From a virus: DNA of 42,607 nt. Position numbers and translations under genes: made by a program. The stretch lies in the IMG/VR virus record IMGVR_UViG_3300015202_000020, positions 1 through 42,607 of that record. One strand, written 5' to 3'. Below, piece after piece: positions 2,324 to 41,401 of the stretch. The stretch's first letter is position 1, and the number at the start of each line of letters is the position of its first letter. The notes under the pieces were generated by a model, which saw nothing but the letters and a program-made list of their open reading frames with translations, did not search any database and was not told where the DNA came from.

Positions 2324-2664
2324 AACGCTCATACATCAAATCCAAGCCCCGCAAAACGTCTGCAATACGCATATCTGCGCGTAATCAGGATTGCACCCTT
2401 CGCTTCGACCAGATATGCAATTTCAACCCTGAAACAACGGTGCTATGCCATTCAAATCACGGCGTTGATGGTTTGGGTATGGGAATTAAATCGAGCGACC
2501 TACGCGCCTGTTTTGGCTGTTCTAGCTGCCATGACATTTTGGACTCTCGCGCACCAAGCTGGTTTAGCAAAGATCAGATAGATCACATATTTGAAAACGC
2601 AGTGTCAAAAACACACATCATCCTTAAACGGATGGGATTGATTGAGGATGATGCAAATGATTAA
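2320..2664 (+). CDS. YbcO-like (DUF1364) putative nuclease
   Basis: 114 residues matching the DUF1364/YbcO family: CTLRFDQICNFNPETTVLCH in the first half, then the cysteine-rich CFGCSSCHDILDSR. The family is a zinc-binding HNH-like nuclease fold found in lambdoid nin regions. The Cys and His pairs (C-N, VLCH, CSSCHD) are candidate metal ligands. It starts in an ATGA overlap with the methylase stop. Its exact substrate is unknown. Confidence 0.8.
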   Translation: MKRSYIKSKPRKTSAIRISARNQDCTLRFDQICNFNPETTVLCHSNHGVDGLGMGIKSSDLRACFGCSSCHDILDSRAPSWFSKDQIDHIFENAVSKTHIILKRMGLIEDDAND

Positions 2665-3430
2665 CCCTTGGTTTCGGCTCTATTCGGAATTCGCCAATGA
2701 CCCGAAAGTGCAAAGCATGGCAGAACACATGCAACGCAGATTAATAATGGTGTTCTGCTTACGTTCTTGTGACGTTCTTGTGACGTTGTGTGACGAAGAT
2801 ATAGCTTTTCAACTCAGAATTTCTGCTGAAGATTTGCAGGAAACAAAAGCGTTATTTATGAAAAAAGGCTTCGTTGGTGATGATTGGGAAGTATTGAACT
2901 GGGAAGCCCGGCAATTTGTATCTGACAGCAGTTCTCATAGGACAAAGCTTTACCGTGAACGTCAAAAGCTGAAGAAATTGAACGAAGGGAACGACATGGA
3001 AGCGTCACAAGAACGTCACAGTGACGCCCCAGATACAGATACAGATACAGATACAGATACAGATACAGATACAGATAAAAACAAGGCAAAGAAAAAATCA
3101 GCGCCTTCGGCTTTTGTCTTGCATGAACTAATTCCTGTTGAAGAATGGAATGCTTTTGTGGATATGCGGAAGGCGGCAAAAAAGAAGATGACTGACCATG
3201 CAAAAGAACTGATGGTTAAAAAGCTTTTGGGATTTGCTGGCGCTGGTTATGACGTGAAGGCGATTTTGAATGCTTCAATCATGGGTGGGTGGTCTGGTGT
3301 GTACGAACCGAAGGTGAAACCCGTGGTGGCTGGTTCTGTCGGTTCCAAGCTTGGTGTTCATGGTCAGGCAACAGCAGAGAACGCGAAAAGGTTTATTGAA
3401 AGTATGCAGGCTAACGGGGGTAATTCATGA
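2657..3430 (+). CDS. Phage replication initiation protein
   Basis: 258 residues from ATG 2657, chosen because GAGG sits about nine bases upstream (in-frame alternatives at 2648 and 2651). The N-terminus (INPWFRLYSEFANDPKVQSM) is typical of lambdoid O-like initiators with a winged-helix DNA-binding domain. An Asp-Thr repeat linker follows at about residues 126-139. The C-terminal domain is IPVEEWNAFVDMRKAAKKKM plus LLGFAGAGYDVKAILNASIMGGW. It probably binds the origin, which may be inside this gene, and recruits helicase with the downstream DUF6475 protein. The same C-terminal segment is partly duplicated in the DUF1376 gene. Confidence 0.8.
   Translation: MINPWFRLYSEFANDPKVQSMAEHMQRRLIMVFCLRSCDVLVTLCDEDIAFQLRISAEDLQETKALFMKKGFVGDDWEVLNWEARQFVSDSSSHRTKLYRERQKLKKLNEGNDMEASQERHSDAPDTDTDTDTDTDTDTDKNKAKKKSAPSAFVLHELIPVEEWNAFVDMRKAAKKKMTDHAKELMVKKLLGFAGAGYDVKAILNASIMGGWSGVYEPKVKPVVAGSVGSKLGVHGQATAENAKRFIESMQANGGNS
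2761..2795 (+). repeat. Direct 11-bp repeats, candidate origin iterons
   Basis: ACGTTCTTGTG occurs twice back to back (2761-2771 and 2772-2782), followed by a degenerate third unit ACGTTGTG. A perfect reverse-complement copy (CACAAGAACGT) lies at 3006-3016 in the same gene. This arrangement inside a replication initiator gene suggests an origin. That is inference. Confidence 0.4.
3032..3077 (+). repeat. (GATACA)7 tandem repeat encoding an Asp-Thr linker
   Basis: There are seven perfect GATACA copies at 3032-3073 plus a partial eighth. The unit is six bases, so copy-number change keeps the reading frame and alters only the length of the Asp-Thr hinge between the two domains of the initiator. 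Confidence 0.9.
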
Positions 3431-7505: not shown

Positions 7506-7591
7506 GCGTTGTTGACCGAGTGGTAAGGTGTGCGCCTGTAACCCGCAAGTATGCTAGTTCATCGGTGGTTCAACTCCATTACAACGCACCA
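7506..7591 (+). tRNA. tRNA-Tyr (anticodon GTA), class II
   Basis: Seven-base acceptor GCGTTGT/ACAACGC with encoded ACCA, D arm ACC/GGT with GG in the loop, and anticodon loop CTGTAAC (7536-7542). A 16-base variable region is as expected for tRNA-Tyr. The T arm is GGTGG-TTCAACT-CCATT. There is one mismatch next to the anticodon loop (C7535 with C7543). The encoded CCA end supports a functional gene. It lies in the leader of the late transcript. Confidence 0.85.
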
Positions 7592-7599
7592 AATTCAAT

Positions 7600-7672
7600 T
7601 GCACCGTAGCTCAATCGGTAGAGCTGGGAGTCAAATCCACGTATGCACGTTCGACCCGTGCCGGTACAGCCA
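7600..7672 (+). tRNA. Degenerate tRNA or tRNA-like element
   Basis: The acceptor TGCACCG/CGGTACA has one mismatch and an encoded GCCA end. The D arm GCTC/GAGC has GG in the loop, and the T arm GCACG-TTCGACC-CGTGC is perfect. The middle is only 20 bases, two or three too few for a normal anticodon arm plus variable loop. Two weak foldings give anticodon CAA or TCA, neither with a proper stem. It is therefore a decaying tRNA or a tRNA-like processing signal. Confidence 0.55.
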
Positions 7673-7784: not shown

Positions 7785-7870
7785 GTCCGGTAGCTTAAGG
7801 TCAAAGCGTGGTTGATGCGTAAAGAAGCATTCAACCCACCATGTGAGTTCGAAACTCACCCGGACAACCT
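7785..7870 (+). ncRNA. tRNA-like structure with a long hairpin in place of the anticodon arm
   Basis: The acceptor GTCCGG/CCGGAC has 6 bp. The D arm GCTT-AAGGTCA-AAGC has the usual GG in the loop, and the T arm GTGAG-TTCGAAA-CTCAC is perfect with a canonical T loop. The central 34 bases fold into an 11-bp hairpin with two single-base bulges and loop GTAAAGAA, much longer than an anticodon arm. The 3' end is AACCT, not a clean CCA. It may be a mimic or processing signal rather than a decoding tRNA. Confidence 0.5.
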
Positions 7871-8017
7871 GCCCACGAACGCGGTGCAGTTAAACAAAGT
7901 GTGAAAGCCGCCATTTAGGGTAGAAGCCTTTCTTAAAATCCGTCTGTATAAACGCTTCAACAGACCTGCAACGCGGTAATGCAGACCTATTCAACAAACT
8001 TCAACTTGGCGGCAAAT
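7871..8017 (+). other. Leader of the late operon with short inverted repeats
   Basis: No gene seen. GTCTGT and ACAGAC form a 6-bp stem with a 12-base loop near 7942-7965, and CTGC/GCAG form a smaller stem near 7967-7985. AACGCGGT occurs twice (near 7878 and 7970). Possible 5' untranslated structure for the first late gene. Confidence 0.35.
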
Positions 8018-34936: not shown

Positions 34937-35962
34937 TTATTTTGTCGGGCTGACAATCTTACCCCTCCTGAGGTAATGCCGCTGCGTAGTTTTAACGCTG
35001 TCATGCCCCAATAAATCACTAGCCGCCTGGTCGCCTCGATCATCCGAGGTATCGTCTGCTGCCTTCGCTCTTAAGTCATAAAACCAGAACGATCTAATTT
35101 CGTTTTCGGCCTCTGGATTGACTTCAATTGCAGCATTGCGTGCCTTGTCGAACTGGTAGCGCAAAGCTGGCTGAGTCACCTTCCTACCAAAATCATTCAC
35201 GATTAGCGAGCCGGTCACTACCTTGTAGGTTTCTTTCCGCGCATGTATTCTGTCGATTAATTCCCCAAGCTCACCGCTTAAAATGATCCGCAATGGCTGT
35301 TTAGTTTTTTCTTGCGTGACGATCAAGTGATTGTTCACAATATCAAATTCGGTCATAGCGATAGCGTCTGCTGGTCGCTGGCCGGTCAAATATGCCAAAT
35401 CCATCGCATCCTTTAACGGCTGACCAGCGCATTTATAAACTATTTTAAACAGCGCATCAGACACGTAGACGGTACGTTTATCCAGACTATGCCCAGAAAT
35501 GCCTTCACAAGGGTTCTGGGCATCCGTATAGCCCCAGCCTCGCGCATGGTTGAATATCGTTGAAAAAAGCCGCTTACACCTGTTTGCGGTCGTTGGTATG
35601 GCTTTGTGCTTGTCAAGAAACTGTTTGATGTGCATTGGCCGGATTTGATCCAGCGGCGCAGTGCCGAAAAATGCTTCAACATGCTTGATGTCGGACCTAA
35701 ATATTTTTTGTGTATTGTTGGCTAGAGTGTCATAAACTTCTAGCCGGTAGCGAATGATTGCCGCAGAAAATGTCGAAGCCTGAATTGTTTTGGTGACATT
35801 TAATTCTGAATATTTTCTGAGCGCAATAATATAATCTTTGCCCAACGGTATTTCTTTGCGTGGTTTTGCGCCAGTATCAAGGTAATAATAAATCTTGTCA
35901 CCACGGACGCGCTTACGCATCATCGGCGGCAAATTTTTATTGACTGTTGGCTCGCGTCCCAT
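34937..35962 (-). CDS. int: Tyrosine-recombinase integrase
   Basis: 341 residues. The N-terminal arm-binding part (MRKRVRGDKIYYYLDTGAKP) is followed by a SAM-like core-binding domain. The catalytic domain has R196 (LTGQRPADA), R298 in YDLRAKA (the HxxR His is Tyr295, as in many phage integrases), H320 (LLGHDS) and the nucleophile Tyr330 (RHYLRRG). It integrates the phage at tRNA-Gly. The stop lies directly against the attP arm sites, and DUF4224 ends one base before its start. Confidence 0.93.
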   Translation of the reverse strand: MGREPTVNKNLPPMMRKRVRGDKIYYYLDTGAKPRKEIPLGKDYIIALRKYSELNVTKTIQASTFSAAIIRYRLEVYDTLANNTQKIFRSDIKHVEAFFGTAPLDQIRPMHIKQFLDKHKAIPTTANRCKRLFSTIFNHARGWGYTDAQNPCEGISGHSLDKRTVYVSDALFKIVYKCAGQPLKDAMDLAYLTGQRPADAIAMTEFDIVNNHLIVTQEKTKQPLRIILSGELGELIDRIHARKETYKVVTGSLIVNDFGRKVTQPALRYQFDKARNAAIEVNPEAENEIRSFWFYDLRAKAADDTSDDRGDQAASDLLGHDSVKTTQRHYLRRGKIVSPTK

Positions 35963-39223: not shown

Positions 39224-39324
39224 AATCTCACCGCCTTGTACAACGATTTAATCGCGCCGAACCCCATGCTGCGATAGGCGCGGTAATAGAAATAAATCCA
39301 ATGCAGCCTGTTATGTATGCTCAT
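39220..39324 (-). CDS. Tiny basic protein
   Basis: 34 residues: MSIHNRLHWIYFYYRAYRSM then GFGAIKSLYKAVRL. Rich in Tyr, Arg and His. ATGA overlaps on both sides show coupled translation. Function unknown. Confidence 0.55.
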   Translation of the reverse strand: MSIHNRLHWIYFYYRAYRSMGFGAIKSLYKAVRL

Positions 39325-39530
39325 TTAACCGCCTCTAAGTTCAGCATTCGATTAGCAGCTTCTATCTGAGCATGTAATGCCGCTTTTTTCTCTGATTTCG
39401 CTTGTGCGATTGCTTCGCGCTCGACCTGCGCTGACTTCTGCTCGTCCTCCATGCCATCGTCATATGCAAACAAGCACAACACGCCAAAGACGATCATTCC
39501 GCACAATATCCAGTCTGCTAATTTGTTCAT
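39321..39530 (-). CDS. Small membrane-anchored protein
   Basis: 69 residues from ATG 39530 (AGGAG five to nine bases upstream; the longer GTG start at 39581 is less likely). MNKLADWILCGMIVFGVLCL forms a membrane helix, then a charged helix follows. First gene after the structured RNA region. Confidence 0.65.
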   Translation of the reverse strand: MNKLADWILCGMIVFGVLCLFAYDDGMEDEQKSAQVEREAIAQAKSEKKAALHAQIEAANRMLNLEAVK

Positions 39531-39591: not shown

Positions 39592-39708
39592 TCATCGACT
39601 GCGAGCAGGATTTACGGGATCGGGACTAACCGGCCAAATCCAGTCATGCGGTACCAACACATAAGCGGGTGGGCTATAAATTCCCACCGGTTTCCGGTTC
39701 AGGCTCAT
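39592..39708 (-). CDS. Possible 38-residue proline-rich peptide within the structured region
   Basis: ATG 39708 is preceded at good distance by AAGGG. The frame reads MSLNRKPVGIYSPPAYVLVP then HDWIWPVSPDPVNPARSR and stops. It covers the 3' arms of the RNA helices. It could be a real peptide or leader, or chance within a constrained RNA. Confidence 0.35.
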   Translation of the reverse strand: MSLNRKPVGIYSPPAYVLVPHDWIWPVSPDPVNPARSR

Positions 39709-39860
39709 TCGTCCCTTACCGCTAGCCACATCCTGTAATTAGCAGGGTAGTGTCATGGTCGCGCCATGCCGCCGCTTATGTGTTGGTGCTGTGTCGATCC
39801 CAGCTACGACCACCTTGCGGTGCTTCCGACTCTCACGGGTTGCCTGTAAAGCGGGCTCGC
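39601..39860 (-). ncRNA. Candidate large structured RNA in the leftward early operon
   Basis: Four long-range helices are strictly nested. P1 is GCGAGC (39855-39860) with GCTCGC (39601-39606), P2 TTTAC (39846-39850) with GTAAA (39611-39615), and P3 GGGATCG (39795-39801) with CGATCCC (39616-39622). P4 is ACCAACACATAAGCGG (39772-39787) with its perfect 16-base complement (39653-39668). Inside P4 lie local hairpins CATGG/CCATG, CCTG/CAGG, CCGG/CCGG and GTGGG/CCCAC. Between P2 and P3 lies CACC-GCAA-GGTG with a GNRA loop. The GNRA loop and operon direction favour the minus strand. Class not identified. Confidence 0.65.
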
Positions 39861-40509: not shown

Positions 40510-40872
40510 ATGTCAAAAAGAAAAAAAGAATGGAAGTCGCACTTGTTGGTTATGTGTCAGGTCATGCCTGAACATATTAGGGAAGCTTTTATAAATGAGG
40601 TGTATCTATCCCTGTTTACTCTGAGTGAGCAAGGGCATTTATGCTTTGAACCGTTTCAGTGTGTCCGGTGGCAAGACCAGATTCTAAAATCAATCTTGCT
40701 CATGTCAGCAGAATGCAGAAGTGAGGTGATGGACTGGGCTGGGGCGCTGCGTGACGAATTAATTTCAAAGGGTATTATTGACCCATTGTTTTCTTACGCT
40801 TCGCTGTTGCACCAGGCGAACCCTTACGATATGGCAAACTCTCACCAGTTGCCGCCGAATGTTTTTCATTAA
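40510..40872 (+). CDS. Immunity-region accessory protein, antisense to the repressor transcript
   Basis: 120 residues. Basic start MSKRKKEWKSHLLVMCQVMP, then helical EHIREAFINEVYLSLFTLSE and DWAGALRDELISKGIIDPLF. Not recognised. Its 3' end overlaps the repressor gene by 98 bases tail to tail, and the predicted repressor mRNA 3' region covers it completely. Position next to the repressor recalls rex or superinfection-exclusion genes, but the orientation is opposite to rex. No clear ribosome site. Confidence 0.55.
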   Translation: MSKRKKEWKSHLLVMCQVMPEHIREAFINEVYLSLFTLSEQGHLCFEPFQCVRWQDQILKSILLMSAECRSEVMDWAGALRDELISKGIIDPLFSYASLLHQANPYDMANSHQLPPNVFH

Positions 40873-41356
40873 TCTGATCGACAGATAAGGTGTAATGCTT
40901 CGCAACAACTGCAACCGGATCGGCTTGCGGCATCTGCTGACCATAATTTACTGGCTTGGCCTTATCCTGGCCGGTCTGTGAATTTGAATTTGCGTTGTGC
41001 GCGTCAATCGCATCATAGACAGCCAGCAATACTCTTTTCTTTCCTCGTGGGTCAAGTCCTTCAAACAATGACAGCAGCTCTTTTGTGTCGCTGTCAGTTG
41101 GTGTCGCTGCGTTGCCGCGAACCTGTCTGACGTTCTCGGCTTCCAGCGCAAGACGTGGGCTGACATTCTCCAACGGTATATTAAAAAAATCCGCATACAT
41201 CAAAGCGTTCTTCATTCCTATTGGACGAATCCCGCGCATCTGCTGATAAATAATATTGTGGTTTATTCCGTGTTCACGGGAGAATTCTGATCTATTTACG
41301 CCAGTAAATAATTTTTTCAGATTTTCTGCTTCCTCTTCTTGCGTCCAGATTTTCAT
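40775..41356 (-). CDS. CI-like phage repressor without peptidase domain
   Basis: 193 residues from ATG 41356. Helix-turn-helix near residues 20-60 (VNRSEFSREHGINHNIIYQQ, MRGIRPIGMKNALMYADFFN), then DTKELLSLFEGLDPRGKKRV. The C-terminal 70 residues are polar and disordered-looking. The S24 self-cleavage domain (Ser/Lys dyad) of lambda CI is absent, so induction must be different, for instance by an antirepressor or degradation. It is divergent from Cro across paired operators. Confidence 0.8.
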   Translation of the reverse strand: MKIWTQEEEAENLKKLFTGVNRSEFSREHGINHNIIYQQMRGIRPIGMKNALMYADFFNIPLENVSPRLALEAENVRQVRGNAATPTDSDTKELLSLFEGLDPRGKKRVLLAVYDAIDAHNANSNSQTGQDKAKPVNYGQQMPQADPVAVVAKHYTLSVDQINEKHSAATGESLPYRKGSPGATAKRKKTMGQ

Positions 41357-41401
41357 AGGTAATTCATCCAATAAAAATATATTCAATACATATTGCACAG
41401 T

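What the first reader, a model, noticed from the sequence alone, without database searches (positions are those of the whole stretch)
39601..39860. Large nested RNA structure in the leftward early operon, possibly an undescribed phage RNA class
Between two small early genes there are about 400 bases with four fully nested long-range helices of 6, 5, 7 and 16 bp. P2 and P3 are directly adjacent on the 3' side, which suggests coaxial stacking. Several local hairpins sit inside the 16-bp helix, and there is a CACC-GCAA-GGTG hairpin. A perfect 16-bp complementarity plus three ordered shorter helices is far beyond chance. It matches no class I can name. Proteobacterial phages are known to carry conserved RNAs of unknown function, so it could be a member of one of those.
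Basis: partly seen in the sequence, partly recalled or inferred. Interest (0 to 1): 0.88.

Follow-up and report, generated by a model that had tools for sequence, protein, structure and literature searches.

The report
New tRNA-like phage RNA family
The region encodes a divergent member of a widespread structured RNA, found in more than a hundred phage sequences and in none of the known RNA families, whose layout resembles the bent elbow of a transfer RNA; what it does for phages is unknown, but it can now be tested.

Summary
On the minus strand of a temperate phage early operon, a 16-bp helix (39653-39668 with 39772-39787) closes a 135-nt RNA. A search starting from a prophage relative led to a large RNA family: 96 IMG/VR modules with the full layout, plus Oxalobacteraceae prophages and named Iodobacter, Caulobacter, Komagataeibacter, Alcaligenes and Pseudanabaena phages.

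The layout is: closing helix P4 of 7-24 bp and nearly free sequence; 2-nt linker CG; hairpin P5 (GCGUG-GAWGGA-CACGC); a variable domain of 43-190 nt; hairpin P8 (GCCGG-UNUCRARY-CCGGC) directly abutting P4. P4 covariation is overwhelming (0.576 vs 0.127 shuffled). A covariance model built without the window places its best window hit exactly here (23.7 bits, E 0.0003; next 10.8).

No Rfam 15 family matched. The layout is that of a tRNA: acceptor-like P4, D-arm-like P5 with GG, T-arm-like P8 with UCRA. The window member keeps the helices but not the canonical loops.

A tRNA mimic acting in trans is the best guess for function (about 0.35). A cis leader and a GOLLD/ROOL-like scaffold are rivals.

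The parts
39653..39787 (-). Core module of the structured RNA (135 nt), the window's member of the family
   Evidence: Best hit in the window of two covariance models built without it: R1 17.2 bits, R2 23.7 bits, E 0.00028, next best 10.8. Fold z -4.76.
39772..39787 (-). P4 5' arm ACCAACACAUAAGCGG (acceptor-like closing helix)
   Evidence: Perfect 16-bp complement to 39653-39668; the 15-bp equivalent is kept with compensatory changes in the 8 aligned modules
39653..39668 (-). P4 3' arm CCGCUUAUGUGUUGGU
39754..39768 (-). P5, D-arm-like hairpin CAUGG-CGCGA-CCAUG; loop lacks the family's GG
   Evidence: Predicted by MFE. It stands where relatives have GCGUG-GAWGGA-CACGC.
39669..39687 (-). P8, T-arm-like hairpin GUGGG-AAUUUAUAG-CCCAC, directly abutting the P4 3' arm; loop lacks the family's UCRA
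   Evidence: Predicted by MFE. It stands where relatives have GCCGG-UNUCRARY-CCGGC or GCUGG-AGUARCGC-CCAGC.
39688..39753 (-). Variable domain between P5 and P8 (place of the anticodon and variable arms)
   Evidence: 43-190 nt and unalignable in relatives
39793..39810 (-).
   Evidence: A local hairpin sits at this place in L267, L285, L300 and L183 (sequence reading)
39606..39649 (-). 3' flank GCAUGACUGGAUUUGGCCGGUUAGUCCCGAUCCC..., shared with closest relatives
   Evidence: 70% identity over 113 nt to L267, E 1.5e-6 in the genome search; the same block in L285 and L272
39550..39573 (-). 3' terminal block GAAAGUAGCCCGGCCACCAACA, about 20 nt before the next gene's start codon; repeats the outer P4 sequence ACCAACA
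   Evidence: 96% identical over 23 nt in L272; same block in L267 and L285
39934..40188 (-). Upstream small early gene (84 aa), no known family
   Evidence: no relative found in IMG/VR
39321..39530 (-). Downstream small early gene (69 aa), no known family

Best explanation
Shown: the minus strand at 39653-39787 carries a divergent member of a structured phage RNA family that no Rfam 15 model detects. In the family, a long helix of nearly free sequence (P4) closes a junction with a hairpin P5 two nucleotides inside its 5' arm, a variable domain, and a hairpin P8 that directly abuts its 3' arm. Inferred: this is the layout of a tRNA. P4 stacked on P8 would be the acceptor/T arm. The 2-nt linker would be positions 8-9. 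P5 would be the D arm with G18-G19, and the P8 loop (U-N-UCRARY) would be a T loop with U55-C56-R57-A58, so the two loops would dock as an elbow. A variable, often pseudoknot-capable domain replaces the anticodon arm. How it most likely works (inferred, about 0.35): transcribed with early or tRNA-linked phage genes, the RNA folds into a tRNA-like L and acts in trans by occupying a factor that grips the tRNA elbow or acceptor/T arm, such as a tRNA-processing enzyme, ribosome-linked factor or tRNA-targeting defence nuclease. P4 length and sequence are free because only its helical shape is read. In the window's member both loops have drifted, so it either uses a different elbow or has partly lost this contact. 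The confidence value is for the structural identity (family membership and tRNA-like layout), not for the function.
For: Covariance models R1 (42 phage modules) and R2 (30 modules), neither containing the window, both rank 39660-39780(-) first in the window. Covariation: A4 97.6% paired, score 0.576 vs 0.127 +/- 0.012 shuffled, all nine P4 pairs with double changes; A5 0.563 vs 0.154, with double changes in P5 and P8 too. Check not biased by P4: with P8 chosen by its own motif, 79 of 92 have all 7 inner P4 positions paired vs 2.7 for shuffled partners. Folding: z -4.8, -5.8 and -6.3, with P4/P5/P8 recovered. Elbow: loops GAWGGA and UNUCRARY at D- and T-arm positions, and D-loop type linked to T-loop type (odds ratio 24, p 1.4e-8); elbow anatomy from PMC4810234. 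Some members lie beside tRNAs or permuted tmRNA. Not in Rfam 15.
Against: The window member lacks the canonical GG and UCRA loops, so its own elbow is unproven. The D/T-loop association is not corrected for relatedness. The T-loop equivalent carries one extra nucleotide. P4 is often far longer than 7 bp and no CCA end is evident, so charging or normal tRNA maturation is unlikely. No expression, binding or phenotype data exist. Only 8 of 96 modules lie within 600 nt of a tRNA or tmRNA on the fetched pieces. P5 invariance in A4 is imposed by the search pattern.
Confidence: 0.75

Rival explanations
1. Cis-acting leader: the module is part of the early mRNA. By tRNA-like folding or processing in the 5' UTR (RNase P-like or RNase III cuts, or ribosome recruitment) it sets expression of the small gene just downstream.
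For: In the window it lies inside a leftward operon, about 120 nt before a start codon, with a conserved block just before the ribosome binding site. Apparent tandem modules also precede small early genes in L267. tRNA-like leaders raise translation 2-6.3 fold (PMC9142559). Long P4 helices are plausible RNase III targets.
Against: Neighbouring genes differ between members (integrase, tRNA, tmRNA, hypothetical genes). The next gene is on the same strand in only 54 of 84 cases (mechanical ORFs). P4 lengths of 15-24 bp do not fit RNase P's 12-bp acceptor/T ruler (general knowledge).
Confidence: 0.25
2. Architectural RNA: like GOLLD or ROOL, the modules are building blocks of a large self-assembling or scaffold RNA, and the D/T-like loop pair only fixes the junction geometry.
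For: Tandem modules or long non-coding stretches in L267, L370, L367, L330, L348 and Bordetella phage PHB04, some beside tRNAs and tmRNA. GOLLD and ROOL are phage RNAs of unknown function often near tRNA islands that form cages (PMC12286853).
Against: Most members are single modules of 100-220 nt. No sequence or Rfam relation to GOLLD, ROOL or OLE. No conserved intermolecular kissing loop was tested.
Confidence: 0.2
3. A DNA element rather than an RNA: P4 arms as terminal inverted repeats of a small mobile element, or a protein-binding palindrome.
For: Arms are perfect inverted repeats; modules occur in tandem and in unrelated phages.
Against: Arms differ freely between members while P5 and P8 stay conserved, the opposite of transposon ends. 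P5 and P8 hairpins also covary. The module has a polarity. No target duplication is visible at the window copy.
Confidence: 0.04
4. One reading: P1 (6), P2 (5) and P3 (7) are functional long-range helices nested around P4.
For: The complementary strings are present in the right order in the window.
Against: The P3 arm is kept without a partner in L285 and pairs differently in L267. P3's 5' arm overlaps a hairpin found in relatives. Whole-region fold z is -1.1, and the MFE lacks P1 and P2.
Confidence: 0.07

Closest known systems
tRNA (cloverleaf and elbow)
   Same: Arm order and contacts: acceptor-like helix, 2-nt linker, D-arm-like hairpin with GG, T-arm-like hairpin with UCRA directly abutting the acceptor 3' strand
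   Different: Closing helix 7-24 bp, no anticodon arm or CCA evident, 43-190 nt variable domain instead, 8-nt T-like loop. ARAGORN calls no tRNA or tmRNA at the modules tested, except that its permuted tmRNA interval in L300 (2538-2909) overlaps a P4-like hairpin.
TYMV-type viral tRNA-like structures
   Same: D/T-loop elbow kept while the rest is rebuilt with pseudoknots (PMC4810234); the variable domain here is enriched in stems anchored against P8, and some members fit H-type pseudoknots
   Different: Not at a genome 3' end, no aminoacylatable end, DNA phages, no sequence relation
yjdF riboswitch (tRNA-like fold)
   Same: Non-coding RNA with D/T-like loops in a tRNA-like shape, in 5' leaders (PMC9142559)
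   Different: Rfam finds no match; not tied to yjdF genes; no ligand evidence
GOLLD and ROOL
   Same: Phage and prophage RNAs of unknown function, some near tRNAs, sometimes long and multi-domain (PMC12286853)
   Different: Other sequence and structure, no Rfam match, mostly single modules of 100-220 nt
Permuted tmRNA (RF04321, RF01850)
   Same: tRNA-like domain; sits immediately beside the module in L380 and beside a P4-like hairpin in Bordetella phage PHB04
   Different: The modules themselves have no tag reading frame and no tmRNA model match; members occur without tmRNA

Membership tests
The family described here (models R1/R2) | Covariance-model match above background, window sequence left out of the model | tested here: met
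   23.7 bits, E 0.00028, rank 1; next 10.8 bits. R1 17.2 bits, rank 1.
The family described here (models R1/R2) | P4 helix closing the module, with compensatory changes among relatives | tested here: met
   Window aligned with 7 other modules, 15 bp kept; A4 and A5 covariation
The family described here (models R1/R2) | P5 hairpin 2-3 nt inside P4 and P8 hairpin abutting P4 | tested here: met
   Both in the window MFE, P5 shifted by one nucleotide
The family described here (models R1/R2) | Canonical loops GAWGGA and UNUCRARY, or the linked variant GRAARYAGA with AGUARCGC | tested here: not met
   Window loops are CGCGA and AAUUUAUAG; filed as a divergent member on the model score and the helices, not on the loops
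tRNA / tmRNA | Detected by ARAGORN or Rfam tRNA/tmRNA models | tested here: not met
   Window: ARAGORN calls only 7506-7591 and 7600-7672. Modules in the relatives tested: no call at the module, except the L300 tmRNA interval overlap.
tRNA-like structure (elbow mimic) | D-loop GG docking with T-loop UC | not testable with these tools
   Loop sequences and their linked variation are compatible, but there are no 3D or probing data; these nucleotides are absent in the window copy
GOLLD, ROOL, OLE and all other Rfam 15 families | Score at or above the gathering cut-off, or a low E-value | tested here: not met
   no match at window or family modules; only tRNA, tmRNA and unrelated motifs elsewhere on those loci
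   (P3 in L267, L285, L272); P1 and P2 have no aligned relatives
Protein-coding gene | Open frame with a protein family match across the bases | tested here: not met
   Stops in all three frames of the window core; no Pfam or PHROGs match; family variable-domain lengths are spread over all residues modulo three

The most novel reading that the evidence does not exclude
A widespread, previously uncatalogued class of phage-encoded tRNA mimics: small RNAs with a tRNA elbow, a free-length acceptor-like helix and a pseudoknotted domain in place of the anticodon arm, which act in trans on host tRNA-handling or tRNA-targeting defence factors during infection. The window carries a fast-evolving member with altered loops.
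Probability: 0.35. Interest if true: 0.93.

Novelty: categorically new. Interest (0 to 1): 0.85.

Why it matters
If the tRNA-like elbow is right, it gives concrete candidates for phage RNAs that engage host tRNA machinery or tRNA-cleaving defences, testable in culturable phages (Iodobacter PLPE, Caulobacter DMCA, Komagataeibacter phiKX1). The covariation is strong enough to build a family model at once.

Tried and rejected
Direct BLAST of the window region against phages, plasmids and E. coli genomes: nothing relevant. 50 contigs of relatives: nothing. Neighbouring 84-aa gene as bait: no relatives. Reading-frame translation of the region as bait: nothing. Microcystis phage hit to L183: inside a coding gene, rejected. 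L232, L289 and L270-type short hits: coding or chance. L183 (Glaciimonas prophage) has a non-coding gap at the same operon position with a long helix, but R2 does not score it, so its membership is left open. Group I/II intron, RNase P, retron, HEARO and c4-like readings: no Rfam support. The weak RNase P-T match (E 0.33) is chance-level. The Bordetella P4-like hairpin scores only 15 bits and is not counted as proven. The literature sequence search gave one unrelated hit; text searches found no description of this family, but subscription papers are not covered. Mechanical ORF overlap proved uninformative in GC-rich DNA.

Full report
What is in the window. The record is a 42.6-kb IMG/VR virus sequence: a temperate phage with tail genes, an integrase at 34937-35962 (-), ERF, SSB and a PolB-type exonuclease in a leftward early operon, and a repressor-like gene at 40775-41398 (-). 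The finding lies on the minus strand between two small genes of that operon, 40188-39934 and 39530-39321. No protein family matches those genes or the frames tested across the region.

Checking the observation. The 16-bp perfect inverted repeat is real (39653-39668 with 39772-39787). About 0.001 are expected per window in a first-order model, although real phage DNA holds more long inverted repeats than that. The core it closes folds far more stably than shuffled sequence (z -4.76, 0 of 200). The whole 411-nt region does not (z -1.1, 14 of 100). The strings for the three outer helices exist, but see below.

Finding relatives. Direct searches failed. The operon's exonuclease led to a Glaciimonas immobilis prophage (L183/L224), whose genome gave a host family to search. 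The window RNA then matched a prophage in genome G359 (L267) at E 1.5e-6, 70% over 113 nt. That prophage has a ~0.9-kb non-coding stretch in an early operon with three apparent modules of the same kind, two of which R2 scores. It in turn matched seven more genomes, two of them at E 1e-19 to 1e-21 (one of the weak ones, L289, is a chance match in a gene), and the Iodobacter phage PLPE in unannotated DNA upstream of a recombination-gene operon.

The family. Aligning eight modules, the window among them, the 15-bp closing helix holds in all eight with few mismatches and many compensatory changes. One conserved hairpin, GGCGTGGAWGGACACGC, which is absent from the window, was used as a pattern over IMG/VR. 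Of 121 matches, 96-99 (depending on the score cut) show the full layout: helix P4 of 7-24 bp and nearly free sequence, linker CG, hairpin P5, 43-190 nt, hairpin P8 (GCCGG-UAUCAAGC-CCGGC and variants), then the P4 3' arm with no gap. In an alignment of 42, 97.6% of cells pair, the covariation score is 0.576 against 0.127 +/- 0.012 for shuffled partners, and sliding the partners by one column destroys it. Because modules had been filtered by P4, this was repeated with P8 picked by its own motif alone: 79 of 92 have all seven inner P4 positions paired, against 2.7 with shuffled partners. In A5, P5 and P8 also show changes on both sides.

The window belongs to it. Model R1, built from the 42 IMG/VR modules, places its best hit of the whole window at 39660-39780 (-), 17.2 bits. 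Model R2, built from 30 modules without the window, gives 23.7 bits, E 0.00028; the next hit has 10.8. The window member is divergent: helices P4, P5 and P8 are there, but both hairpin loops differ from the family.

What is not supported. L285 keeps the arm CGATCCC without a partner, L267 pairs that flank with another stretch, and in relatives the 5' arm position is taken by a local hairpin. P1 and P2 have no aligned relatives and are absent from the MFE.

Distribution. R2 confirms modules in Caulobacter phage DMCA (64 bits), Komagataeibacter phage phiKX1 (64 bits, beside tRNA-Met), Pseudanabaena phage Pan3 (61) and Alcaligenes phage QDWS595 (48), all in unannotated intergenic DNA. R1 finds 7 of 354 genomes of the Glaciimonas family, and the exact hairpin is in 5 of 379 genomes of the phylum. 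Some modules sit directly beside tRNAs or permuted tmRNA (L352 1 nt, L330 3 nt, L380 13 nt), but only 8 of 96 lie within 600 nt of one. Many overlap a mechanical ORF of at least 100 aa (only 40 of 96 overlap by less than 30%), which is expected in GC-rich DNA and does not show coding: domain lengths are spread over all three residues modulo 3.

Architecture. The arm order, the 2-nt linker, the direct abutment of P8 on the P4 3' strand, a GG in the P5 loop and UCRA in the P8 loop together are the layout of a tRNA, in which G19 pairs with C56 and G18 docks on position 55 (PMC4810234). Loop types change together: GAWGGA goes with UCRA loops, other P5 loops with AGUARCGC-like P8 loops (104/16 vs 4/15, p 1.4e-8; relatedness not corrected). 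The variable domain is enriched in stems whose 3' strand ends against P8 (58% vs 26% shuffled), and several members fit H-type pseudoknots. This is inference from sequence; no 3D or probing data exist.

Mechanism. Shown: a conserved, base-paired RNA shape under selection in many phages. Inferred: tRNA-like elbow. Guess (about 0.35): a tRNA mimic acting in trans on a tRNA-handling or tRNA-targeting factor. Cis leader (0.25) and GOLLD/ROOL-like scaffold (0.2) remain open. tRNA-like leaders are known to raise translation in cis (PMC9142559), and GOLLD and ROOL are phage RNAs near tRNA islands that form cages (PMC12286853). A large phage RNA of unknown role is also the most abundant transcript of the Vibrio phage ICP1 (PMC7567579).

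Novelty. No Rfam 15 family matches the window region or the family modules, and text searches of open-access papers found no description. Subscription papers and preprints were not searchable, so an earlier description cannot be excluded. tRNA mimicry as such is known, which tempers 'categorically new' for the mechanism but not for the RNA family.

Noticed in passing
window 2768-2785 and 3003-3020: A perfect 18-bp inverted repeat (TGTGACGTTCTTGTGACG) inside a coding gene (2642-3430, +), longer than the 16-bp one of the finding.
   Followed up: no
window 7785-7880 (approx.): A third tRNA-like gene after tRNA-Tyr and tRNA-Leu (GTCCGGTAGCTTAAGG ... GAGTTCGAAACTCACCCGGAC) that ARAGORN does not call.
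   Followed up: partly
L276 (genome G111), 1501-1540: A CRISPR array with type I-F-like repeats holds a spacer 88% identical over 40 nt to the non-coding gap of the Glaciimonas prophage (L183 RNA 21-60), so that region is targeted as phage DNA.
   Followed up: partly
L300 2538-2909 and L380 3426-3728: Phage-borne permuted (two-piece type) tmRNA genes, in Bordetella phage PHB04 with three tRNAs, in L380 beside the RNA module.
   Followed up: no
L298 7944-8060; L308 7798-7924; L332 1542-1615: Rfam motifs Betaproteobacteria-1 (RF02932) and Burkholderiales-2 (RF02917) on the same phage or prophage pieces as the new RNA or its candidate relative.
   Followed up: no
L285, L288, L183: Long pentapeptide-repeat-type or alanine-rich low-complexity genes lie next to the RNA or the corresponding gap in several Oxalobacteraceae prophages.
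   Followed up: no
L300 2160-2260 and 2455-2555: Further long (14-19 bp) helices in the Bordetella phage tRNA region that look like the same kind of closing helix but were not scored by R2.
   Followed up: partly
L366 7645-7757 (-) and 7824-7961 (+); L402 550-687 (-) and 757-882 (+): Pairs of modules on opposite strands, back to back within about 70 nt.
   Followed up: no
L424 1133-1319: A module joining the P4 sequence of one subtype (AAGCAAGGG) with the loops of the other (GATGGA, AATCAAGC), an intermediate between the two loop types.
   Followed up: yes
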